The notes under the pieces were generated by a model. It ran no database searches. It was not told the DNA's origin and worked only from the letters and a program-made list of their open reading frames with translations. The translations under genes were made by a program, and so were the position numbers. A stretch of DNA of 64,000 nt, from the NCBI RefSeq assembly GCF_036711975.1, contig NC_091972.1, forward strand, positions 9,863,001 through 9,927,000, written 5' to 3'. This stretch comes from Onthophagus taurus. Lineage: Eukaryota; Arthropoda; Insecta; Coleoptera; Scarabaeidae. Numbering within the stretch: position 1 is the first letter of the stretch; every line of letters starts with the position of its first letter. Of this stretch, positions 3,121-61,896 are shown piece after piece.

Positions 3121-6100
3121 TTAGTTGTCTTGATTACCCGATTGAGAACCTCCACTGTATCCATAGCCCGAAAATCCTCCATATTGATTTTGAGCTAAAA
3201 AAAAAAGTTTAATATTTAAAAATCAATCTCAAAGTACTAAAGGATGATATGCAAATGTGACAAAATTTGGTCGTTATTATCAAATGTAATTTTAAGTTTT
3301 TTTATGAACAAAATTTTTTTTACCTGGTGCTTGATAACCTCCTTGATAAGGCTGGTAACCACTGTTCCCGCCATTTCCTTGCCCAGGCATTGCTGCAGCT
3401 ACCGGTGCTGCTTGGCCACCAGGTTGACCTTGCTAAACATCATTATTAAATCAAATAAATTAACTTTCATTTCTATAATCACTTATTATTTCACCTTTGC
3501 TTTCATTTGAGCTTCAATAGCTTCAGCCTCTTTCAATTTTCCCATACTTCGATAATACTCCGCCCATTGAGCGCTGTAATCAGGTTGAGCTCCATTTGCA
3601 GGGGTTTGTGATTGCTGTTGCTGCTGCTGTTGTTGTTGAATTGGATTAGGCGCGTTTTGAGGAGCTACAGTGGGTGCTATTGACATGTTTTGACCACCCA
3701 TTGTTTTATTTTTTGCCTACAAAAATTAATCAATAAAATATGATGATATAAAATTTTTTTTGCTTTAATATAAAATAATTACTTGTTGTTCAATCATTTC
3801 TGCTTCTCTAACCATCCCCAAAGATCGATAATACTCTGCCCATTGTAATGAATAATCAGGTTGGGAACCAGAATTTTGGCCACCCATACCGGGTACATTT
3901 GTATTGCCATTTTGATTATTACCCCCTTCTGGACCTTGTGGAGCTGGATTATTACCCCACTGTTGTTGATAACCCTGAGAACCCCATCCTTGTGGATTGT
4001 AACCTTGTGGAGCCATCCCTGGATATGCCTTAAAAATTTGAGTTATAAAAAGTTTAATTCAAAAACTGTTTACTTACTGTTGGAAGATTATTTGAACCAC
4101 CCATACCAAGTGTAATATAATTAATTTGCATTTGTACTTTATCGTTAATGATGCGCTTGGCAGTTTCGATTTGTTCAGGATCGCCGCGTATGGTAAATGT
4201 CTTTTCCGATGAGTTTTGGTTGTTTTGAGATCGCCTATCTAGTTCGCAATGAGCTCCAGATTGTTGATTTATGTGCTTAATTGTTTCTCCCCCTCTACCA
4301 ATTATAACGCCACATTTCGAACTGGGAACTGTAAACGTGACTTCTTGTGCTGGCTGTTGTTGTCTTCTATCATCCCAACCATTACCACCACCATAATCTT
4401 GATTATTATTTCGATTATTTTGTCTATTATCATAACGTTCGCGACCTCCTCTACCTGACCCTGATCCTCTTCCACCTCCACCGCCATTACCATCAGTATC
4501 TCTCCTATGAACACTATCGATTAATTCTTCTATTCTTTGTCTAGCTTGATCTACTTGTTGTGGTTTTCCAGATAAATAACACCTTCTTTCGCCTGGTCCT
4601 TCTTCTCGTGCTTGTTGAAATTGTACCTTGGCTCCAGTTTCTTGTTGAATTTTTTTAATCATATCACCTCCTTTTCCAATAACAACACCCACAGCTGCTC
4701 TAGGTACCAAAACCTGTTTTTTTTTTTACATTTTTATGAATAAAATTGGTTAAATTTAAAAGATATTTTTACCTCTGCTTCACTATTTCCTCCATATTGA
4801 TCATATTGTCTATCTTCCATACCACCCCCTCTATTCATTCCACCATTACCCCCGCCACCACCACCACCACCCCGTCTATTGTAAGCTTGCATCTCTTTTT
4901 CTGCTATTAAATCATAAACTAATTGTTTCGCATATTCAACTTTTGCGGGATCGCCACTGATTCTTAAAGGTTTTTCTTGTTCTTGATTTGGACCATCTTG
5001 TATAACAACCATTTTCGCCCCGCTTTTCTCTTGGAGTTGTTTGATAGTTTCACCACCTTTTCCAATGATTAATCCTACTTTAGGTCCAGGTACCATTATT
5101 TCCACAAAGTTTCTTCCACCGCCTCCACCTCCTCCACCACCCATTTGTTGATTATTCATATTACCTACAATAAAAAAAGAAACGTAAAAGTAATTATTAT
5201 GCAGGGTTCTATAATTATTAATAAAAATTCAGGTAGTCATGTTTTATTCTTATTCTGAACAGCAATTTTTTAATAAAGAAACTTTAATGTTTTAGTTGGG
5301 TAGCAAATGCATGCTCTGTTTAAAAAGTTGGTTTAAATATCTAATTTATGATGAGCTAAATTCTCGAGCTCAACATAATTTCACCATCTCATCTTTTGAT
5401 TATAAAATCTATTCGTAAAGTATATGGTTGCCTTCATTTGTAACCATAACATGGTGTCGCCTAGGCTGTTGGAAAATACCTAAAACTACTGGTTTTAATA
5501 ACAAAACATGTTTGCATAATGAGTAAAAAATAATATCATTAATCAAAACAAAGCTGTGAAAATATTATTAATAAAGTCTAAGTAAGGTTTTATGAAAGAT
5601 TAAGTCAGTGGCCAAGAACAACGTCAGTCTCATCTGAAGATTGAGAAGGTTAAAAGGTTAATGGTAAGGTTAGTGAAAGTATGCCTCAGGATTATAGGAT
5701 TACTTTAAAGTAGAGAACTAACACGAGAATTGTGAAACACGAATTTAGGAGGAATATATTCATACTTCAAAAACCCAGCAAGCTACGACAACGAAATCTA
5801 AGACTCTAAGAAGTTTTTGGTCATATTCCTTAACCGGAAGTGGTAGTTTATTTGATCACCATCCGTCATTTTTTAAATAAACTGACGTTTTAAATAAGAT
5901 AAATGCGTGAAAATTTGTATAAGCCTTTATAATTATGAAGTGGTCAATTTTCTTCATTTAGGAAACTCATATTCAAACCTGCTGTGATTGAAGAAGACTG
6001 GTTTGTGCAAGAAAATCATTCTAATCATAGGCCTCCCAAATATTACAAAGTGGTGTATTGTGAAAGGTACAGGTCTTTTCCATGCAAGGATGCTTTTAAC

Positions 6101-8343: not shown

Positions 8344-11300
8344 TTAATGAGTACCAGGTTGTTGTTGAATCTCTATTTTTTCAACCGTCATATCTGGATT
8401 CATCGCAGTCGCTTCTTGAATTGCTTCTGCCAAAGCCCTATCATGATCAATCGGATCACCATCTGATTGAATCGTTATCTTTTGTTCTACTCTCGTTTCA
8501 ACAACACCATCTCTTTCAGTTTTGTACTAAAATGAAATTATTAAAAAAAAAATTGGATTAAAAAATTAAAATAAATCATACTGTAATCGTTTCAACTGTT
8601 CTTGTTTTTGAACTGATGGTCTGCGAGCTGATTATTTCTCCTGTTGCTGAATAATTTCCATCATCAGAAGTGAGATGAACCTTTCGAGCTTCCGTTGCTA
8701 CAACTGGTACAGAGGATGTTGTTGATCTGACTATTGTTGGATCTCCACCATATACAACACTTTCAGTTGGAACGATTCCACCGGGAATTTCAGCCTAAAA
8801 ATATTTTAGTACAATATTTAAAAAAACACTTCAAGTTAACTCAATAAAGTTAGAAAGAAATGAGAGTTAATGGACAATATATAAAATAGCTGAAAGATAT
8901 TGAAGAAGTTCATCCAAAAGTTTAAATGCTTTTTGTACTTACTTTTGATGAAGACTCCATATTTTCATCATAGTCTGGTGGATCAATTGGAGTACCAGAA
9001 TCATCTGAACTGATAGAGCTAGTGCTGTCGCGTCGGCCCAACTACAAGCCATGCAATGAGTTATAGGGTTAAAAACATGTAGCTGGGTCACATTAAAAGC
9101 AACACATAACAATGAAGATTAAAAAAATCTTTTTTGCAATTTCATAAACAAAAAAATGTAATTTTTATGAATGGGGTCATCACATTACGAATAAATGATT
9201 AAGATAATAATGCTATTTAAATTCAAACGATTAGATTCATCAACATAATCAGATTAGATTAAACAGTGAAATTAAATAAAAATTGGAGTAAAAAATTAAC
9301 CTGTTCTCCGCTAACTACAGTGCTGGTGGTTTTAACTTCTTGGGTAACAGTTCGTTGTTCTTGTCTGGTCGCGCTCGATGTCATCGAATGGGCAATGGTT
9401 TTCTCTTCGAGTTGTTGGGTGCGAGCATTTGTTCCTAAATCTTCATGAGTGGTAGCTGTGCGGGTTGTTACAGCATGTGCTCTAACAAACGGTGACTTAC
9501 CATCGTCCGTTGGCTCAGCCTTAATTTTGTAAACAAAAAATATAAAAAAAAGGGTAACGTTAACTATTTAGGAATAATTATTGCAAATTAAATTGTATAA
9601 AATATTTATTCGAATTTTTAAAACTTGTGATTTAAGTGTTTTTAAAGCGCTATTAATCGAGTATGATTTTGGTGTGTTGTTACTACTTCAAAAATATATA
9701 AATTCAAAAGTCATTTTTTTAATAAATTGTTATGAAAAGCGTTCATTGTTGTTTTTCATGGGAAATAAAGTGGGAAGTGTTTTAAACTAACGGTTTTAAC
9801 CCAACCCAATTTCACGAACCTGAAAGATAAAATAAGGAAGAAAATAAAGAGATTAGCAGACTTTTTTAAAAGCTTTCTCTAAGCCTATTAACTGCGCAAC
9901 GAATTAGCTTTACTTAAGCATCGAGAAGTATAGATAACTTGCGGAGCGGCTGTATCTTGATAATGGTAAGACATAGAAGTATGGGAAAAAAATTGGTGGG
10001 AAGTGGGCAAGAAAATATCTGGAAAATATTTTGAAGTTGGTAATTAGACGCAACTGTCATAAAGAAACAAAATTCTCGCTATCTCGGAAAGTAAGATGAT
10101 GAGCTATAACTTTGACAACATCATTTGGTAACTTGGATAATATCGCATCGCTTTTGCTTTGTGACATTTCGCACATATGTCCATAATAAGGGAGGGCAAT
10201 GCATTTTGAAATATTTACATCTTAATATCTTCTGGACCATTCAACCAAATTGAATATTTTTGGTCTTGTTCAAAAGAGCATTTTATGTTATGTATAGAAA
10301 GCAATCTGCATTAGAAAGCAACAAACATTGTTCGTCATGAATTGATGAATTGTTATGGTAAGTTATATGAAGCGATTTTGAAGAACAGAAAGAAGAATCA
10401 TTAAAAGAGAAAGAAGGACGGTCGAAGGATTAGTGGTTTGGCAAAGGAAGCAATAGATCCACTGTAAATGCAATAAGGAAGTTATAGGGGAAGCAAATAA
10501 ACTAGAAAAATTTAGACAAAGGAAGAAAATCAAAAGTATGTTGGAAAAAATTATGCTGGTACTGCAAAAGAAAGGTATATCTACGAACTTGGTTAACATC
10601 ATCAACGACTACCTAAGTAGAAGATCTTTATAACGATAAAATATACTAGGTAAGTATAGGATTCCCACAAGGTGCTATTTTAGGCCCGCTTTTATGGAAT
10701 GTGTTTTTCGATCAAATATTTGAAGTACAAGAAAACAATAAGTATGTTAAATTGGTCGTATACGCAGACGACTTAGCGGTTGTGATTAATGAATAAAAAA
10801 TCGAGAAATGCTGCAGTTGCATCGCAAGAATATGTAACGCAATTTCCCCAAAGAAGACATTTTTCTCGAGAAGTGTTTTCAAAATTGGCTAAACGATTAC
10901 AGTAAATTGGCAACGTGCAGCCCATTCAGACACTTCTAAGAATTCGTGGTACACATTAGTGCGCAATGCGTTGAGCACCAGAAAAATTTCCGACGACCTG
11001 GCAATTCCGAAAACAATTGTCTACAAGATATTTCAAGAGAATAATAAGCATTCCTACCAGACAGTTTTACATCGGACTTACAGATACCGATTATGATAAC
11101 AAGTTGAACTAATGCTGAACAAATACTATAATAATTTGCATAATATGGATCATTGGTTTGAGCAAAACCCACATTGGATGCAGCAGGTAAAGCATCAAAA
11201 TCGCTGGAGTTTAAAGGTATGGTGCAGAATCGTGGAAGGAAAACACATGGGTTCGTATTTTTTTGACGTAACCCTTAATGGAGAAAAACTTTATGGTAAT

Positions 11301-14300
11301 CTGGCGCATTATGGCCGAAACGTACGCCAGCATTTGGATGAGCAATATCCAAATCACGTTATTGGAACAGGAAGTCTATTTCCTAGGCCGGCGCATTCGC
11401 CTGATTTAACTGGTTTAGATTTTTATCTATGGGGTGACTAAAAGGCCTAGGTTTTCAAGAGAAACCAACTACCAACGGCGATTTTTTCTACCGAAACTAG
11501 ATTAAATAAATGTATCAAGATTGATGGAAGACATTTCGAACATTTGTGAGCAATTTTTGGCTAAAATTTGATTGATGCTAAATGTTTTGGTTTATTTTGT
11601 TTTATTGTCATTATTGATGTTTGCTTGGCTCGTTTGCCTCAACACACCTCAAAAACAGTTTTGAACCAGTCCAAAGCTTGGATAAAGTAAAGTGAAGTGT
11701 GACGAACTTCAATCTAATTTCTCTTGTCCACTCTGCTGATAAAGATTTTTTTTCCCAAACCTCTAAACCTTACCATTGTCGAGATACTTCGTTCCTTACC
11801 GCGACACCCAGTGCATTACTTTTTCAATACTTCCATTATTTCTTACTTTCAGTATTATTATACGAACTAGTACATAATCTCTAGATATATAATATAGTAG
11901 CTAGTTAGATAGCAGTACTAAATTCTGTTTGATATCAATTCAAAATGACTTTTGAAGTACTTATTTAACACAGAAAATTCCAAATAAAAAACACTTAAAA
12001 AAGTAATATTTTGATTTCTGCAATTCCATTTCTTTGACAACCAAAATAATTTTAATTTTAAATTTCTAAAAACAAAACTAATATGTACAAATGCATTTGA
12101 GCAAAAATTAAATACAAATGCTTATCATGAGAGATGCAACTACGTAATTAAAAAAATATTTATACTAAATATTATTCTCACCTTATTAGTTTGACTTGAA
12201 ATTGTAACCTCACCAGTACGACCATCTTCAACTTTTTCTTCAATATTCTGCGTTACACCATCCCTATCTTTAGTAATAATTTGTTTTGTAGTTGTTTTTA
12301 CAACAACTGGAGTGGTAGGCGATTTCATATGTGGTATTTTCAAACTTGGCAAATCCTTTAAAGTTTCCGCCGCGTATTCATTCAAATCTTCATCGCTGCT
12401 TTCGCCGCTTTCATCACCTTTCTTTACTTTATATTTAACGTTAGTATCTTTAAGATCTTTGAAATGGCTCGGATCGATTTGGGCGTAATTGAGAATTAAT
12501 TCGTTAGTTACGGGATCTCTACGTGCTGTTTCAGGGTCGATATCTCCAGTTTGTGGATCTATATGTCCCCATTCAGTGTGGATTCTTCCGGTTTCCGGAT
12601 CAATTTCGCCGGAAAGTGTTAATATTTGAGTTATTTTTGTGTTTGCATCTCTTACTAAAGGATTATTCGGATCAACTTGAACAACTTTTCCGGTTTTTGG
12701 GTCAACCATGCTGTACCAAAAGACGGTTTGAGTGGTGACGTTAATTATTCGTCCAGTTTTTGGATCAATTTGACAATCTTTCGGGTTGATTTCTTTAACT
12801 TTTCCATCGGAATTTTGAGGCGAAATAAGATAAACTCGGATTAAAATAAGCTTTCCAGTTTTTGGATCAACAACTGCGTATTTCGTGTAAACATCTCCGG
12901 ATTTCGGTTCGATTTCGGATGTGGAATAAATCGGATTTCCGGATTTATCGACGTCGTTTGTTTTATAATAAATTTGTTTTGTGTCGGGATCAACTTTTAC
13001 ATTTCCTGGAGTAACTTTTTGCGATTTCGTTATTGTTCCAAGTTTCGGATCTAAAACCCCATAAATATTTGAAACATATCCTGTGTTTTGATCAACATGT
13101 CCGGTTGAATAAATATCTTGTTTTAGAATTTGATCGTAACGATCGAACAACCATAATTGTGATGTTTTCGGATCGATTTTAACATCTTTTTCGGCGAATT
13201 CTAAAAGATTACCTTTTCCATCTATTTTCGGGTCGATTGTTGACACGGAAATAACTTTTCCATAATTAGCGTCGATCTTTCCTGTTTTCGGATTAACGTA
13301 ACCTTTAACAATAATTTGTCCTGTTGTTGTATCAACGATTCCTTGTTTAATATCTTGTTGTCCCATTGGATCGACGTAAACTAATTGCCCACTTAACAAA
13401 TCAAGTTGACCATATTTGGTTAAAACTTTATTAGGTGCGTTTCGCAAACCAGTTGAGACATCCACGGAGCAATTTTTAACATCAATCGTATTCTTTTTCG
13501 CATCAATTTTTCCTGTACAAGTTATAATCGTTACTATAGGTTCAATTTCGTTACCTAAAGTAATTATTTGTCCTAAATTATCGTTTATATTATCAGTTTT
13601 GGGATCAATAACACCTTTATTAATTATAATATTTCCTTCTGGATTTCTCTCAATCGGTACTTCATCAAATCCACCAGTTTTTGGGTTCTTTATTTTTAAA
13701 ATGTACTTATTTAAATCAAGAATACCATATTTCGTTGTGATTTCGCCGGTTGTTGAATTAATTTTAGCTTTTGTCGATTCCATTTGGCTTTTATCTTTAT
13801 CAATTTCACCGTTAGGTTTTTTAACACCTATTAGAGATGATATTTCTATTGTTGGATCATTATGCCCGATAATACTAATTATTTGTCCTAACGTATTATC
13901 AACTTTTCCTGTTTTTGGATCTTTTATTCCTTCACGCAAAATAATTTGATCGCAATTTTCAGATAATTTTATTGGTTTCGCATCAACTTTACCAGTTTTT
14001 ACGTTATTGTTAATAATTTTTTCGCTCTTTGGATCAATTAGACCATAAATAGATTCAATTAATCCCGTATCTGGGTTAAATGTGGCTAAAGATTGTTCGG
14101 TATGTCCTTTTTCTGGATCTAATTTTCCCGTTTTAGGATCAACCTTAGTAGTAATAACCGTTATTTTTATTAATCGTTTTTTGGGTACTAAGGTTTTTGA
14201 TGATTCAATTGGCTCAATGGCAAAAACTTGTCCAGCAATCGGTTCTGATTTGTTTGTTAAAAGTTTATTTCCACCAACCAAAATTTGATTTGTGTTAGGT

Positions 14301-17300
14301 TCAACTTTTCCTTGAACTATTTCGTTTTTACCAGTTGCTGTATCATAAACAATAACATTTCCGGTTTTTGGTTCAATCAGGCCATATTTTGTTTCAACAA
14401 AACCATTATCATCAACCAATCCGGTCAGATTTTCAACCAAACCACTTTCAGGAATGACTTGTCCCGTTTTTGGATCTTTTTTAACCGTAATAACCATAAC
14501 TTTAACAATATTTTGTTTAGGTACCAATCCAATTTTCTTCGGAGATGTTTTAACACTGTCTGGTTTAATTGGCGTCGGTTTCGAAACGTCAGCTTTAACC
14601 GGAGTTTTAACAATTTCCGTTTTCGTCACTGTTTCGACTTGTTTAACAGGAGAAGGAGCCACTTTAGGTGTTTGTTGTTTAACTGGACTTTCAGTAACAA
14701 GCACTTTTGGTGGAGCAACTTCCTTAATGACAGGAGTTGTTTTTGGTGCCAATAATTGTTTTTCAACTAAACCATCAATAACAGGTTCTTTAATTTCAAC
14801 TTTAAAACTACGTCCAAAATGTGAATCAACTTTATCTGATTTTGGATTAACAAAACCGCCTTTAAAGACAACTTCACCTGTACTGGGTTGTACTTGACCT
14901 TGACGAGTATCAACAACTCCAGTTGTGTGCTCGAATAATGTTAAAGAACCATCAACTGGGTCTAGTAAACCAGATTTAGTGATGATCTTGGTTTTTGTTG
15001 CGTCATAAAGTGCTGAGTTAGTTTCTGGTACAGCTGATTTATCAATAAGATTTTTCTTCGAATCCAACTTTCCTGTGCAAGTTGTTACTGTTATTTCTGG
15101 ATCAACTTCTGAACCAATTTGTATCATTCTACATAAACCTTTCTCAGGGTAATCATTCACAACGATCGTTCCATCTTCTTTCGTTTCAATTGGTAAATCA
15201 ACTTTTTTACCTGATTTATCAATAAATGAGATTCTCATCAATTTTATGTTGATTATTCCGTGTTTTGTAACAACTTCACCAGTTTGTGGATTCACTATTC
15301 CATTATGCATCTCTGTACTTGTCGTTGATGGGATTAATTTATTCGTGGCAGGATCTATTTTACCAACGGTTGAGTTAACAACACAAACCGATTTGGGAAT
15401 TTCTAAATTGACGACTGTAACTGTATTTGGATCGATTTTTCCCGTTTTAGGGTTAACATTGTTTGAATCAATGATGATTTTATTAGGATTTTCTGTGTTA
15501 ACGGATGAAACGATTGGTTTTCCAGTTTTTTTATCTTTTTGGATAACTTTGCCGTTTTGCAAGTCAACTTTTCCATTTCTAAACTCAACGACATTTTCAA
15601 CCGGATCGTAAGTTGCCGTTAATTTCTCAACCAAACCGTTCTCAGTATCAATTTGTCCCGTTTTTTGATTACGTTGTGTTGTAATCACTACGATGTTTAT
15701 TAAGCGTTTTTTCGGGATTAATTTTGATGGTGTTTTTTCTGATGTATCTTCCGGTTCTTCAACAATAGTAATTAATTGTCCGCTGTTGTTATCTAGATTT
15801 CCCTGGGCATTTAAAACAGGTCCTGATAATAAAATTTGACCGGTTGTAGGTAAAATTTTTCCATTTACAGTTGTTTTTTGTCCAGTTTTCGGATCAGTAA
15901 TAACGATCGATCCATCTTTTTTAATCACTCCATATTTCGAATCAATATCGCCATTAGAAGACTCAATGCCGACAGATTGATCAACTGTACCTTTATCAAC
16001 ATGTAAATGACCAGATTTTGCATCTTTAGGAGCGGTTATAACCATGATTTTAATAAGTTTTGTTGTTTTAGCAACTGGTTGTTGCTTTGTTGGGGTTGGC
16101 ACCGGTGTTACATCAATGGGTTGTTGTTCACTAACGTCTAATTTAACTGATCTTCCATATCCAGCGTCGACTTTTCCAGCTTTTGGGTTATAAATTCCTC
16201 TAAATACGATTCCTTTAGCATTAGGATCATAATTTCCGTGTTTTACTTCATATTTATTCGACTTTGGATCAATACAAGTTAAAGTTGATTGTACAGGATT
16301 GAAAATACCATGTTTTGTGTGTACTACATTATTGGTTTCATCAAAAAATCCTAAAGATTCATCAGAATGGGCCGTTTGGGTGTCAAAACCTTTTTTTGGG
16401 TCAGTTTTTGATGCAGCCGATTTGATTGGAATCTCTGATTTATCTTCTAAAGAAATCTGTAGGATTTGACTCATACTATCATCTTGTTTTCCCGTTAATG
16501 GATCAATTACTCCGGATAAAATAATAATATTTCCGTTTTCATCCAAATGTATTGGCGTTTCAACGGAATCTCTTTTAATTGTTTTTGAAGATAAATTAAC
16601 AATTCCATATTTAGTGATAATATTCCCATTTTCCATAACACCTTTTGAAATTTCTTTGTGTGCCTTAGCTGGATCTAATTGACCAGTTGTTGGGTTTCTC
16701 CTTGCAGTAACAGATGTAACTGACACAGTTGGTTTTAAATCACTTTCTAAACGAACGATTTGTATTAAGTTTGAATCGATTTTTCCCGTTTTAGGATCGG
16801 AAACTCCGTCTTTAATGATAAATTCGCCGTTTAGGTTGGTTTCAATTGGTTTAACTTTGCTTCCTTTTTGATCAGAATACAATATTTGTTTCTTTTCTGG
16901 TGAAATTGTTCCCACTTTCGTATCAATTTCTCCAGTTGATGGATCGTAAACGGCGTAACACTCCTCAGTAAATCCTTTTTGTTCGTCGACAGCACCAGTT
17001 TTAGGATCTCTTTTAGAAGTAATTATTTTAATTTTCACGATACGCTTTTTCGGTTTTAAAACTTGACTTTGCAGAGTCTCTGTAAAACCAATTATTTGTC
17101 CGCTTGTTGGATCAGCTTTTCCGGTTCTCGGATCGATTACGTTTCCTTTAACAATAATTATTTGTTTCGTTAAAGGATCGACAATTCCCTGTAATACTTC
17201 TTGTTGATTATTTTCCGGGTTAATAATCGTCATCGTTCCTTTTTGTGGATTAATCACACCGTAATTAGTTTCGATTAAACCAGTCTTAGAACTTTGAGTT

Positions 17301-19754
17301 CCTTTAATACAATCCAATTGACTATGCTCCAAATCAAGTTTTCCTGTTTTAGGATCTTTTTTAAGCGTTGTTATATAAATATTAATTTTTTTGATAGTTT
17401 CAATCGGAAGAGGATCTTTTGTATAACGTTCGTTATCTAAGAAAGCTTCACTATCAGTTTTCGGGCTTTTTAATTTTGCTTTTAACTCTTCGTCTTGTCC
17501 AGGAACGTAACTAAACGCAAATCCTTTTTCACGTTTCATCGGTGGAGATTGTTGCGTTGTAACTTCACCAGGTAATTGATTTGGTTGATCGTAAGAAAAT
17601 CTGGATGGTTTTTTAGGCGTTGATTGTTGTTGAGAAGGTTCGTAATCGTATTGTTTCGTATGTCCAGCCAATTCGGGTTGTTGTTTTTCTTTCTTTTGAC
17701 GGTCGTCTGCTTTAACGGGAACCGTTTTTGGCGGAGAAGGCGTTTTTTCTGATTTTTTATCACGTTTCGAGCCGAGAAACAATAAACCAGGGCTCTAATG
17801 TAAACACATGCAAAAAGAAAAAAAATAACTATAGATATACACGTGCAAAATAAAAATTATTTACTTCTCTAAAAAAACGCCACTGTTCTTACTTCTATTT
17901 CTACCATTTTTTTTTAATTCAAACTTTTCATATAATATTAAAGCATATTTTTTATAAACACAAACGAACTTACCTTTGATCTCTTTTCTGGAGACGATTT
18001 TTTCTCTTTCTCAGAATCTTTGTGTTCACCATTTTGTTCCGGGAGATTCGCATCTTTATTTTCTTTATTTTTATCAGCTATCTCTTTTTTGGGACTGGTT
18101 AAAGAACGCTCTTCAGAGACAGGAGACTTCTGAAACATTTAACATATATTTTATTAAATCAAATTGCAAAATTTGATATTTTGAGGTTGGATATGTCAAA
18201 TGTCATTTTGACGTTTAAATGTCATATTTAATAGAAATGTCATTTTGACGTGCTTCAATTTTTGATTTTACAACATTAAAATGCATTAAACACAAAATCT
18301 AGAGGTGAAAACGATTTCTTTGTAAGAAACTAAAATAAACTTAAATAAAAAACGTCATTTTGACAGTTACTGTCAAATTTTAATATACAAATTTAATTTT
18401 ACCTGTTCCTTCTTTGAATCCTTTGATTTATCCTTTTTACTTGGTTTTTTCGAAGCGAAATGATTGTCAATATCCGGAATATGTTCTGGTGGATGAGACA
18501 TTGTATGGCGTTTGTTGCCTTCGTAATTATCTTCATCCATTGCACCACCTCCTAAAGCTTTTACAACGATTTTAATACTTAAGTTACAAATTTTTGATCG
18601 ACTTACGATCCATGCTTCTGGAAGTTAATCGACGTCCGGTAAGTGATCGTTCGAAATGTGGAGCAGGACGATCGATGGGTGTACGTTTCGTTTCGTAATG
18701 AGTTCTTCCCGAATACCTAAATTTGGACCCTAATTTCGGGAATAACGAAGATTTTTGTTTCGTTTCGGGCGACATTAACCGGAAAAATGTGTGGTGTTCA
18801 ACGCAAGTTTTCCATAATTTTTCGGCAGCTCTATGATTAGCTAATTTGAACCCAATGGTTGATTCGAATTGTTCAAATTCTCCAGGACGAATTTTAATAT
18901 AAAAATTGTGTCGTTTGTAGCTTATTTTTAAGATTTTCGGCCAAGCAAAACGATTAATTCGCAATTGATCCCGATAAACTAATAAACCAGATGCGCAAAC
19001 ACCTAACATTATGTCGACACCTTCGGAATCTTTAGCTGAATGTAAATCGACGCCGTACATGGCTAATTTTTTAGCATTTTCTAAATAGTGTAATTCAGCT
19101 TCTGCGGGACTTTGGCCTCTATGAGTCTTGTGAAGTTCCATAACTTTAGATTCGAGTTCACCGCTTTGATTCGGTGCAAATTTGAATGTAGAGAGATAAT
19201 TTGTACCCATTGAATCGGCATCGTAATCTCCTAACTCAGATTGAACGAGATACGATCCTAATAGTGCGTGAGTAACAAAAGAACACGGAAGACGATTGTT
19301 GAGAATATCGTTGCGTATTTGAAGACATAAATGATATCGAGTGATGTCTTCTTGTAGTTGAGCCGGATCGGGCGGATAAAATTTAACGGCAAAATTAAAT
19401 TGCCACGGTTCGGATTTCATAACTTTTCCAATTCTTTCTTCAAGATCTAACCAATTTCTTGGGTCATGTCTATCGCTGTAGAGTAATCCGAAATAATCTT
19501 TTTCTATTATATTTATAGATTCGCATACTTTTAACAAAAGTTCTTGGCCTTTTGCTCGTCGCTATTAAAAAAATCAAATTTGATATTTATATTTTATTTA
19601 GATTGAAATTACTTACATCGATATAAATATCGAGCACAGTTCCATCTAGCAATGTTATTTTTGCTAGGGCATTTCCAGATTTACTAGGCGAAGAAAGCTT
19701 GTTGGATGGTGATTGATTTTCGGTTCCGATTGCCATCTTCTTTTCTTCAGGCAT
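8344..19754 (-). CDS. cora: Coracle, protein 4.1 family FERM protein with giant repeat exon
   Basis: Membrane-skeleton protein of insect septate junctions; its FERM domain binds neurexin-type membrane proteins. Nine coding exons on the minus strand: 19617-19754, 18607-19561, 18403-18551, 17974-18129, 12182-17794, 9301-9519, 8943-9041, 8582-8794, 8344-8526 (7725 nt, 2574 aa). Residues 33-320 form the FERM lobes ([36 protein letters not shown], the [13 protein letters not shown] core of lobe C), followed by the FERM-adjacent segment. Residues 365-466 are Lys/Glu/Ser-rich. Residues 467-2337 come from one 5,613-bp exon of DPKTG-type repeats. The exon at 9301-9519 carries the family block [18 protein letters not shown]. 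The last two exons encode the conserved 4.1 C-terminal domain ([18 protein letters not shown] ... [18 protein letters not shown]). The start [10 protein letters not shown] is the first ATG after an acceptor, so an untranslated leader exon is expected upstream. Confidence 0.95.
10381..10870 (+). mobile_element. Non-LTR retrotransposon (LINE) reverse transcriptase fragment
   Basis: Plus-strand pieces in more than one frame match successive reverse transcriptase blocks: [15 protein letters not shown] near 10440-10500, [14 protein letters not shown] near 10590-10630, [17 protein letters not shown] near 10660-10715, and the catalytic YADDLAVVI near 10758-10785. The YADDLAVVI form and block spacing fit R1/Jockey-like LINEs. 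Only part of the domain remains and it is broken by frame changes and a stop soon after YADD. It lies antisense in a coracle intron and abuts a mariner-like fragment. Confidence 0.8.
10880..11560 (+). mobile_element. Mariner/IS630-like transposase fragment
   Basis: The plus strand encodes, from about 11112 to 11441, a DDE transposase C-terminal region: [39 protein letters not shown], then [17 protein letters not shown] and [16 protein letters not shown]. The last motif is the ARSPDLTPLDFFLWG signature of this superfamily. The region around the second catalytic aspartate between NGEKLY and the HLDEQYP segment is missing, so it is internally deleted. Upstream to 10880 are weaker DNA-binding-domain pieces ([21 protein letters not shown]). 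Inactive relic. Confidence 0.85.
13195..17406 (-). repeat. cora: Three tandem copies of a four-module cassette in the coracle giant exon
   Basis: Reading the translated exon, I can align twelve modules of about 100-115 residues in three cassettes of order A-A'-B-C. A modules open with a (P)KKRLIKI-x-VIT-like strand followed by a DPKTG turn (starts near 17406, 17070, 16075, 15722, 14527, 14190). B modules start near 16735, 15387 and 13846; C modules near 16430, 15095 and 13532, two of them opening with TCTGK(I/L)D. Each module carries KYG-type and NPKTGKVD-type turns. The cassettes run about 17406-16078, 16078-14528 and 14528-13195. A Pro/Lys/Val-rich linker (about 14540-14775) pads the end of the second. 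Copies are diverged, so the tripling is old. Confidence 0.85.
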
Positions 19755-39850: not shown

Positions 39851-40726
39851 CTAAACAGCAATAATACAAATAGATTCAGTGTTTTTTCTTCCAAGACACA
39901 ACTTTCCAGCTTGAGGAGAAAAAATTCTTCGCATAACTTCTTTAATTTCATTAACACTAAAAGGTGGTTGTCCATTATAAACCCTACTATAATCAGGATT
40001 TAATCCAGTAAATCGATGTTCACCATTAAACATACTTCCTGTATAATATAACCCACTTAAATCCCCCAAAGGATCACCGGTTCTTCGATTATCTAATCTA
40101 GCTAAAAATGCAAAATCTGCAATTTGCGCCACGGTTTCATAAGCATAATAAGCTAAGACATCAAATGAGTTTGTTGTAAAATTAACTTCTTTTTTGGGAT
40201 CAATCCATTGACGAAGTTTTTCAAAGTTTCTAGTTTGGGACATTTCTTTGCTATTGAAAGAGGCACATCTCGCTTTTGCAAATTTTATATATTTTTGTTC
40301 ATCCAAAGCCAATGAAATTCTATCGGCTCTTAATTGCCTTTGATGTTTCACCTCATCAAACTCATTAGTATCCATTAACTCCCCAAACTCATCCATTTTC
40401 TCAATAAATGTTAGTAAAGGAGGTTTTGGCTTATCAGTTAAATCAACAACATCAGAATCTAAATGCTTCTTCATGTCTTTGTGTTGAAGATATTTCACAA
40501 ATCTTCGCATTTTTACTTTATTCTTTCGCATCAAAAACACCAAATGTTCACCTTTCAATGTATTATTTTCAGAATGTTTTAAACCTTCTTGAACTATTAA
40601 TCTTAATTGACTTAACACTATACTTTCAACTAATCGTACTGTTTCTGGATTTGGTGTGTGACTATCACCAAAACCAAACATCATCAATGATATTTCATTA
40701 TAATAGGATATCTTTTGCGAATCCAT
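39851..40726 (-). CDS. Spt3: Spt3, SAGA complex subunit
   Basis: Histone-fold transcription cofactor of the SAGA complex that helps deliver TBP to promoters. A single uninterrupted 291-codon frame on the minus strand. The N-terminal histone-fold pair is visible in EISLMMFGFGD, VRLVESIVLSQLRLIVQE, HLVFLMRKNKVKMRRFVKYL. It is followed by EVKHQRQLRADRISLALDEQ, the CASFNSKE / LRQWID block and VLAYYAYETVAQIADFAFLAR, all hallmarks of the SPT3/SUPT3H family. The C-terminal part (FNGEHRFTGLNPDYSRVYN) continues to a short basic end. Being intronless among intron-rich neighbours and bracketed by ~120-bp direct repeats, it could be a retrocopy or a relocated segment. A decayed partial copy lies at 45847-46350. 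Confidence 0.93.
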   Translation of the reverse strand: MDSQKISYYNEISLMMFGFGDSHTPNPETVRLVESIVLSQLRLIVQEGLKHSENNTLKGEHLVFLMRKNKVKMRRFVKYLQHKDMKKHLDSDVVDLTDKPKPPLLTFIEKMDEFGELMDTNEFDEVKHQRQLRADRISLALDEQKYIKFAKARCASFNSKEMSQTRNFEKLRQWIDPKKEVNFTTNSFDVLAYYAYETVAQIADFAFLARLDNRRTGDPLGDLSGLYYTGSMFNGEHRFTGLNPDYSRVYNGQPPFSVNEIKEVMRRIFSPQAGKLCLGRKNTESICIIAV

Positions 40727-40849
40727 TTCTAAACTATATTATAGGGATGTTCGATCGATTAATCAGAAAATTGAGGAACATTTATAACAACTTCTTTTTA
40801 TAATTTAAAAATTCCACTGTAAAAACGAAGCCCTTTTCATGAAGTTATG

Positions 40850-60375: not shown

Positions 60376-60489
60376 GAGCCAGACTCATATTAAATTATCT
60401 TAACATTAAATTTAAATTAAAAAAGTGATATTTGATGTTGAGTTAATTAATTTTACTTTTTGTTTTCAAATCTAGATTAAAACCTAAAA

Positions 60490-61896
60490 ATGGTACAACA
60501 AGAGAACCAACCGGAAACTCCAACAACCCCACCGACTCCAATTCCAATTAAAAACCTTGCGAAAGGAGTCGAAGAAGGTCGTTATCGTTTAGTAGGATGG
60601 GCAATAGACACAACTGGTCGTCGTTTAATTGATGAAATCTGTCAAATAGCTGCTTTTACACCGGAATCGCAATTTTCTCAATACATTATGCCGTTTAGCG
60701 ATATTCGTTTGATTTACCGTAGACGACATAGCATCCGAGTCATCAACATGGGTCGTTATAGAATGTTAAAAGATCTTCGTACAAACAAATTTGTTAAAAC
60801 CAAGAGTGAAATTTCCGCGTTAACCGATTTTTTGGTTTGGTTGGAACAAATCAAAGGTGACGCAACTGAAGGGATCATCTTGCTGTTTCACGATATACAT
60901 AAATACACGCCAGCGATGTTGTTGGAGTCTATGCGTAGACATCATTTGTCGGAACGTTTCGCTAAGGTGGTGAAAGGTTTTGCGAATTGTTTCAATATTT
61001 CTCAGGATAAATGCGTAAATACCACGAAGACGTTTAGTTTGAGGGTAATGTCGAAGATACTTTTAAATAAAGAAGAAGATATTAGCAGTGCTGTTACTCG
61101 AGCTCAATCTTGTTATGAAATTGTTGTTCATTTGGGACAGAGTGAGGTACAAGATTTAGATTCGAAGGGTAGCGGCGATTGCAAAGGAAGTGAAAGTCAT
61201 CTTATTGATATGGTTAGACCATACACAAATCCCGTTCAAGCTGAAGAAGGCGAAATTGTTAAATTTAAGGTAATTGATTCAAATTTCTTTGATTTTTTGT
61301 AATAACATTTTAATTTAGGTTTTGCTTGATCGCCAAAACACATTTAAACCCGTTTTTGGAGCTTTATTAAGAGCTACAGCCACCGAACGTCAACACGCAA
61401 GTCATATGCGAAGAATTTTGGCTGAAAATAATATTGATTACGACCAATTAAGGACTGCTTTTGATAATAATGCTAAAGATGGTTTAGAAAAAGTTTTAAG
61501 GGAAAATATTGTTCAATCAGAAGTAAGTTATAATAATAATTTTAATCATTCCTTTTTTTATTTTATTGATTCCTTTTATTTTATTGTTTCCAGGAAACAA
61601 ATGTTAAAGAGGAAGAAATTAAAGAACTGTTAGAAATTTTAGATTGCTTCTTTGATCCGGAAAAGAAAGCGGTTCAACCCAAACCACGTTTCTACGCGAA
61701 TCATCACAACGGACCACGAAAACCGGGCAATAAACAACGTGGATTTGTAGATAAAGAGAATAAGGATAAAAATGCGAATATGATGTCGGCGGTTGATGAG
61801 AAGAAGCCTGAAATTAAAACTGAAATCAAAACTGAACTGCCAGATGCGTCGCAAATGGTTGAAGCTGAAGTAACAGTTTCATCTGCTGTCGCATGA
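60490..61896 (+). CDS. exu: Maternal effect protein exuperantia
   Basis: Insect RNA-binding protein needed to localise bicoid-type mRNAs and for spermatogenesis; structurally an inactive DEDDh exonuclease-like domain plus a SAM-like domain. Three coding exons: 60490-61269, 61319-61522, 61594-61896 (1287 nt, 428 aa). The family block GRYRLVGWAIDTTGRRLIDE and ICQIAAFTPESQFSQYIMPF opens the exonuclease-like domain. Then come MGRYRMLKDLRTNKFVKTKS, LTDFLVWLEQIKGD and ILLFHDIHKYTPAMLLESM. The exon 1/2 junction leads into the SAM-like part (VLLDRQNTFKPVFGALLRAT). The C-terminal exon is Lys/Glu-rich and low in complexity. The start is the first ATG after an acceptor, so the leader exon is upstream (about 56.9 kb). 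AATAAA at 62432-62437 may end the transcript. Confidence 0.95.

What the first reader, a model, noticed from the sequence alone, without database searches (positions are those of the whole stretch)
13195..17406. Coracle giant exon is three copies of an ordered four-module cassette
The 5,613-bp exon is open throughout and can be parsed into twelve ~110-residue modules in the order A-A'-B-C, three times. A modules share a KKRLIKI-x-VIT strand plus DPKTG; two of the three C modules share TCTGK(I/L)D. This implies amplification of a pre-built ~440-residue cassette rather than simple growth of a short repeat. I know that fly Coracle has a long isoform with an insert, but I do not know of this higher-order organisation being described. 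A regular beta-rich rod of this size between FERM and the C-terminal domain could act as a spacer or spring at septate junctions.
Basis: partly seen in the sequence, partly recalled or inferred. Interest (0 to 1): 0.8.

Follow-up and report, generated by a model that had tools for sequence, protein, structure and literature searches.

The report
Giant Coracle exon: triplicated four-module cassette
One very large exon of an apparently insect protein 4.1 (Coracle-type) gene encodes twelve related beta-rich modules laid out as three copies of one ordered four-module block, which probably make an optional long spacer between the membrane-binding and C-terminal parts of the protein.

Summary
A minus-strand exon (17794-12182, 5613 bp, phase 0 at both ends) lies between FERM/FA exons and a 4.1 C-terminal domain. 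Similarity peaks at every fourth module (0 of 20000 reorderings). Held-out class models place 11 of 12 modules as A-A'-B-C three times. Connector lengths repeat too: A-A' 10-15 residues, A'-B and B-C 1-3, cassette-cassette 24 and 92. Cassettes are 32-36% identical, so the triplication is old. A finer strand-and-turn repeat lies inside each module. A module is predicted at pLDDT 88 as eight strands, with no convincing PDB fold match. Spacer function is inference. Other insects could not be tested.

The parts
12182..17794 (-). giant exon, 5613 bp, phase 0 in and phase 0 out, so it can be skipped in frame (inferred from splice sites)
   Evidence: acceptor TAG before 17794, donor GT at 12181-12180; upstream exon ends and downstream exon starts in phase 0
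16133..17395 (-). cassette 1: A 17395-17051, A' 17047-16739, B 16735-16439, C 16438-16133
16067..16132 (-). linker 1, 22 residues, 23% Pro
14783..16066 (-). cassette 2: A 16066-15719, A' 15718-15401, B 15400-15104, C 15103-14783
14519..14782 (-). linker 2, 88 residues, rich in Pro, Lys, Val and Thr, no Phe/Trp/Tyr
13232..14518 (-). cassette 3: A 14518-14183, A' 14182-13859, B 13858-13538, C 13537-13232
12440..13231 (-). degenerate repeat tail of the same grammar, 264 residues
   Evidence: four partial matches of 9-26 bits at exon residues 1563-1777; weak matches between tail and cassettes, E 0.0007-0.005
17396..17794 (-). N part of the exon, 133 residues, charged and Pro-rich, no module match
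12182..12439 (-). C part of the exon, 86 residues, acidic then Thr/Val-rich
   Evidence: one partial match of 1.2 bits, no better than shuffles; resemblance to the 4.1 C-terminal domain not significant
18607..19561 (-). FERM and FA coding stretch; 19561 is the edge of the open frame, not a proven exon start
   Evidence: FERM_N, FERM_M, FERM_C and FA over their cut-offs; donor at 18606 read from sequence
18403..18551 (-). exon, charged linker
   Evidence: splice sites and frame read from sequence
17974..18129 (-). exon, 52 codons, charged, ends in phase 0
9301..9519 (-). exon that follows the giant exon, starts in phase 0
8362..8523 (-). 4.1 C-terminal domain in the last coding exon
   Evidence: PF05902, E 8e-11, 49.7 bits, over cut-off; the only match reported in the genome

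Best explanation
The exon encodes an optional insert between the FERM/FA part and the C-terminal domain of a Coracle-type protein 4.1. Shown: twelve homologous modules in the order A-A'-B-C, three times, then a degenerate tail. Shown by prediction: each module is an eight-stranded unit whose turns often carry a [DN]PxTG motif; A' to B and B to C are joined by 1-3 residues, A to A' by 10-15, and cassettes by Pro-rich linkers. Inferred: each cassette is one free module plus a tight three-module segment, and the whole is a jointed, segmented spacer that sets distance or compliance between the membrane complex bound by FERM and whatever the C-terminal domain binds. Because the exon is phase 0 at both ends, a cell can include or leave out the spacer by splicing (inferred). 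Origin: a strand-and-turn repeat built a module, modules built a four-module block, and the block was copied twice (order of events inferred).
For: Twelve HMM matches, held-out classes 11 of 12; period 4, 0 of 20000; same-cassette grouping rejected; connector pattern 10/2/1, 15/2/2, 10/3/2 with 24 and 92 between cassettes; five longest connectors in just those places is 1 in 462 arrangements; 20 [DN]P.[TSK]G turns in residues 134-1521 against a shuffle mean of 0.26; module model pLDDT 88.3, pTM 0.74, eight strands; cassette model pLDDT 75.2 with 8, 8, 8 and 9 strands; phases. [quoted passage not shown]
Against: The pTM of the cassette (0.47) leaves module packing, hence rod shape and length, open. 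No transcript or protein data for this species. A free linker after every A module and 24- and 92-residue linkers argue against one stiff rod. The review passage says FERM alone rescues dorsal closure in fly null embryos (PMC8006247), so the insert is not needed for that function. B2 is divergent, with a gap at the last turn.
Confidence: 0.5

Rival explanations
1. Multivalent docking scaffold: each module class (A, A', B, C) keeps its own binding surface, and three cassettes give three copies of each site for partners at junctions or synapses.
For: Class identity is kept although cassettes are only 32-36% identical; C modules form the best supported group (99/99). In a paper section, large fly isoforms concentrate at the neuromuscular junction dependent on Dystroglycan (PMC2323113).
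Against: No binding data; class differences may simply be inherited; one invariant column only across the 12 modules shows no conserved site.
Confidence: 0.28
2. Mechanical spring: modules unfold and refold under load, as in titin-like proteins, and the Pro/Lys/Val/Thr linkers give entropic elasticity.
For: Serial folded modules with Pro-rich linkers.
Against: No force data; the likeness to titin's PEVK segment is recalled, not tested; nothing shows that the chain bears load end to end.
Confidence: 0.13
3. Near-neutral expansion: the repeats grew by slippage or unequal exchange and do little beyond adding length.
For: FERM alone rescues dorsal closure in fly (PMC8006247 passage).
Against: Open over 1871 codons; class identity, turns and connector lengths kept at 32-36% identity; a confident fold.
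Confidence: 0.06
4. No cassette: a short repeat grew one unit at a time and the A-A'-B-C parsing is an artefact.
For: A 7/14-residue sub-repeat exists; 4 of 12 nearest relatives are of another class; A and A' are not clades.
Against: Period 4 (0 of 20000), held-out classes 11 of 12, connector pattern, same-cassette clades rejected.
Confidence: 0.03

Closest known systems
Drosophila Coracle, large isoforms (up to 1698 residues)
   Same: Protein 4.1 type with FERM and FA domains and a 4.1 C-terminal domain; fly cora has four isoforms of 699-1698 residues and sequence found only in the large ones (PMC2323113 section 15).
   Different: No fly sequence was held here, so it was not tested whether the fly insert holds the same modules. 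The insert here, 1871 residues, is alone longer than the whole 1698-residue fly isoform.
SasG/Aap E-G5 beta rods of staphylococci
   Same: Works-like only: serial beta modules making an elongated protein (PMC4458895, listing and start of abstract). Pfam SasG_E gave E 0.08 in 1 of 12 modules.
   Different: No significant sequence match; intracellular, with Pro-rich linkers; SasG did not appear among the 50 listed fold matches of either PDB search.
Plakin (plectin) repeats
   Same: Recalled likeness in Asp-Pro-x-Thr-Gly-like turns of cytoskeletal linkers.
   Different: Pfam Plectin only E 0.97, 9.8 bits against a cut-off of 20.5, in one of three cassettes.
RanBP1/EVH1 (PH-like) domains
   Same: Top Foldseek hits of the module, E 0.035, prob 0.89.
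   Different: TM-score 0.34, rmsd 9.5, highest TMq among the 50 rows shown 0.38: not the same fold.

Membership tests
Protein 4.1 / Coracle | FERM domain (N, M, C lobes) | tested here: met
   PF09379, PF00373, PF09380 over cut-off; FERM_N from profile position 16, the rest lies in an earlier exon not traced
Protein 4.1 / Coracle | FERM-adjacent (FA) domain | tested here: met
   PF08736, 49.6 bits, cut-off 30.6
Protein 4.1 / Coracle | 4.1 C-terminal domain | tested here: met
   PF05902, 49.7 bits, cut-off 25, profile 52-104 of 107
Protein 4.1 / Coracle | orthology to fly Coracle and an alternatively spliced large insert | not testable with these tools
   no insect sequences besides the own genome; exon phase allows skipping but no RNA data
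Plakin repeats | Pfam Plectin repeat over cut-off | tested here: not met
   best 9.8 bits, cut-off 20.5
SasG E domain | Pfam SasG_E significant match | tested here: not met
   1 of 12 modules, E 0.08
PH-like domains (RanBD, EVH1) | same fold, TM-score above about 0.5 | tested here: not met
   TMq at most 0.38 in the 50 rows shown, no match at E 0.001 or below among 513
PepSY (for the tail) | Pfam PepSY over cut-off | tested here: not met
   22.9 bits against 24, E 0.0001, over 21 residues only

The most novel reading that the evidence does not exclude
The modules are an undescribed protein module with a fold not in the PDB, built in three nested steps (strand-and-turn unit, eight-stranded module, four-module cassette, three cassettes plus a tail), that turns a protein 4.1 into a splice-selectable giant spacer of tens of nanometres (length inferred, not measured) between membrane and cytoskeleton.
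Probability: 0.4. Interest if true: 0.68.

Novelty: new variant of a known kind. Interest (0 to 1): 0.5.

Why it matters
Coracle is a core septate junction protein studied in fly mainly through its FERM domain (PMC8006247 passages). If its large isoforms carry an ordered, old, structured array, then cells can choose by splicing between a short and a very long linker, and constructs that contain FERM only, or short isoforms only, miss that function. The array also gives a clean case of nested repeat evolution, and a confident, unmatched module model is a practical target for structure work.

Tried and rejected
Known families: Pfam on the whole exon, on 12 modules, and on three cassettes and the tail gave nothing over a cut-off; the nearest were PepSY (22.9 bits, cut-off 24) and GLAA-B beta-barrel (18.1, cut-off 28), both in the tail. 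NCBIfam gave three families, each in 1 of 12 modules, best E 0.0035, taken as chance. PDB by sequence: the whole exon, best E 0.47; the module profile, none at E 1 or below.

Known folds: PDB for the module, 0 of 513 matches at E 0.001 or below; PDB for the cassette, 1 of 602 (3hol, a transferrin-binding protein B, E 0.00035 but TMq 0.16 and rmsd 28, rejected); viral library, 0 of 607, highest TMq in the 50 rows shown 0.44.

Origin from the 4.1 C-terminal domain: the C part of the exon looked like it by eye, but 94 of 1000 shuffles score as high; cassettes 1, 2 and 3 and the tail: 53, 22, 72 and 173 of 300. Rejected.

Relatives elsewhere: own genome, all 4 places found with cassette 3 and all 5 found with the tail lie in this exon (the tool scores best candidates only). 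Viral and prokaryote contigs: patterns matched 3, 17, 365 and 20 stretches, none confirmed. Telomere repeats as a clue to the insect order: TCAGG none, TTAGG two overlapping internal matches, uninformative.

Self-BLAST of the exon returned no rows under the settings used and was replaced by diagonal scores, alignment and HMMs. The tree has the same likelihood as that and is not an independent check.

Full report
What was checked. The exon runs on the minus strand from 17794 to 12182: 5613 bp, 1871 codons, no stop, 34% GC with 22% GC at third positions. It begins after an AG and ends before a GT, and is phase 0 on both sides; the exon before (18129-17974) ends in phase 0 and the exon after (9519-9301) starts in phase 0. 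So leaving it out keeps the frame. Upstream lie FERM and FA domains, downstream a 4.1 C-terminal domain, the only match to PF05902 reported in the genome.

Modules. I set twelve module edges by eye, aligned them, and built an HMM. On the exon it gives twelve full-length matches of 82-132 bits at residues 135-1519, four partial matches of 9-26 bits in the tail (1563-1777), and one of 1.2 bits at 1826-1864 that is no better than shuffles, whose best over 200 exons is 6.4 bits. Leave-one-out models score 44-115 bits for 12 of 12. A model from one cassette alone finds 8 of 8 modules of the others, for each of the three cassettes, the weakest being B1 at 13.1 bits (all). I call the second class A'; scripts and trees label it D.

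Order. Mean pairwise z is 17.9 at a distance of four modules and 20.6 at eight, against 8 to 15 at other distances; the period-4 excess is reached by 0 of 20000 random orders, period 2 by 1884 of 20000, and periods 3, 5 and 6 show no excess. With class models from two members and the third held out, 11 of 12 modules score best with their own class, though the own class had one model and each other class the best of three; the miss is B3 (54.6 bits for B, 57.6 for A'), and A1 and B2 are won by about one bit only. In the tree of 12, the four labels need the minimum of 3 changes (0 of 200 shuffles), C is supported 99/99 and B 91/94, but A and A' are not clades (16% and 3% of 200 bootstrap trees). 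Holding A or A' together is not rejected (p-AU 0.335, 0.277), while holding the four modules of a cassette together is rejected for all three (0.0008, 0.00002, 0.0008). By simple pairwise z, 8 of 12 modules have their nearest relative in their own class; A1, B1, B2 and A3 do not.

Connectors. Residues between successive HMM matches are 10, 2, 1 | 24 | 15, 2, 2 | 92 | 10, 3, 2. The five longest connectors sit exactly at the A to A' and cassette to cassette joints, 1 arrangement in 462. The two linkers between cassettes are Pro-rich (23% and 16%) and hold no Phe, Trp or Tyr.

Age. Cassette pairs are identical at 131 of 406, 149 of 414 and 146 of 416 aligned residues (32, 36, 35%), with third codon positions alike at 41-45%: old copies with no sign of recent homogenisation. 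The pairs are too even to say which copy came first.

Below the module. Comparing the module profile with itself at an offset gives peaks at 14, 21, 28, 38, 45, 52, 59 and 66 columns, spaced by seven or ten, the best reached by 0 of 1000 column shuffles. The [DN]P.[TSK]G turn occurs 20 times in residues 134-1521 against a shuffle mean of 0.26 and a maximum of 4, and in 8 to 9 of 12 modules (looser form) at three places that fall between predicted strands. This may be shared turn grammar rather than common descent of the strands.

Structure. AlphaFold2 on one module with the 12-row alignment gives pLDDT 88.3, pTM 0.74 and eight strands. A whole cassette with three rows gives pLDDT 75.2, pTM 0.47 and 8, 8, 8 and 9 strands, with the last strand of A' and the first of B, and likewise B and C, only three residues apart, and low confidence at the A to A' joint. 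Packing and length are not settled. No convincing fold match was found; the single match at E 0.00035 has TM-score 0.16. VIA-align was not available, and no library of predicted cellular proteins was on hand, so a new fold is possible, not shown.

Function. A paper section says fly cora encodes four isoforms of 699 to 1698 residues, and that an antibody against sequence present only in the large ones stains the larval neuromuscular junction (PMC2323113, section 15). A review passage says that FERM alone rescues dorsal closure in null embryos, and that FERM binds Neurexin IV (PMC8006247, passages); the original papers were not held. I therefore favour an optional, jointed spacer (0.5), with docking (0.28) and a spring (0.13) as main rivals.

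Literature. Ten searches were made; seven paired coracle with isoform, size, insert, repeat or evolution terms. No title or abstract start in those lists describes this repeat array. The one hit for internal repeats is a reference about armadillo. I opened four papers, by passages or one section (PMC2323113, PMC8006247, PMC4111903, PMC12276802); the others I saw as listings only. The 1994 coracle paper was not held, so an earlier description cannot be excluded.

Noticed in passing
12440-13231: Tail after cassette 3 follows the same strand-and-turn grammar but matches modules only weakly, has more aromatic residues (7% against 3%) and an under-threshold PepSY match (22.9 bits, cut-off 24). By recall this is the part most like fly Coracle; not tested.
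   Followed up: partly
15104-15400: Module B2 is the most diverged (end branch 1.77) and has a gap where other modules carry the last turn.
   Followed up: partly
12182-12439: The C part of the exon resembles a strand of the 4.1 C-terminal domain by eye (RDGV...), but 94 of 1000 shuffles score as high.
   Followed up: yes
60481-61299: Exuperantia RNase H-like domain, E 2e-80, plus strand.
   Followed up: no
4057-5228: KH domains with a vigilin KH match on the minus strand just downstream of the gene.
   Followed up: no
39854-40738: TFIID 18 kDa subunit domain, minus strand, E 7.5e-18.
   Followed up: no
G000:C3:12202483-12202517: Only a short internal TTAGG run was found in the genome and no TCAGG run; the tool skips common simple repeats, so this does not show telomere type.
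   Followed up: no
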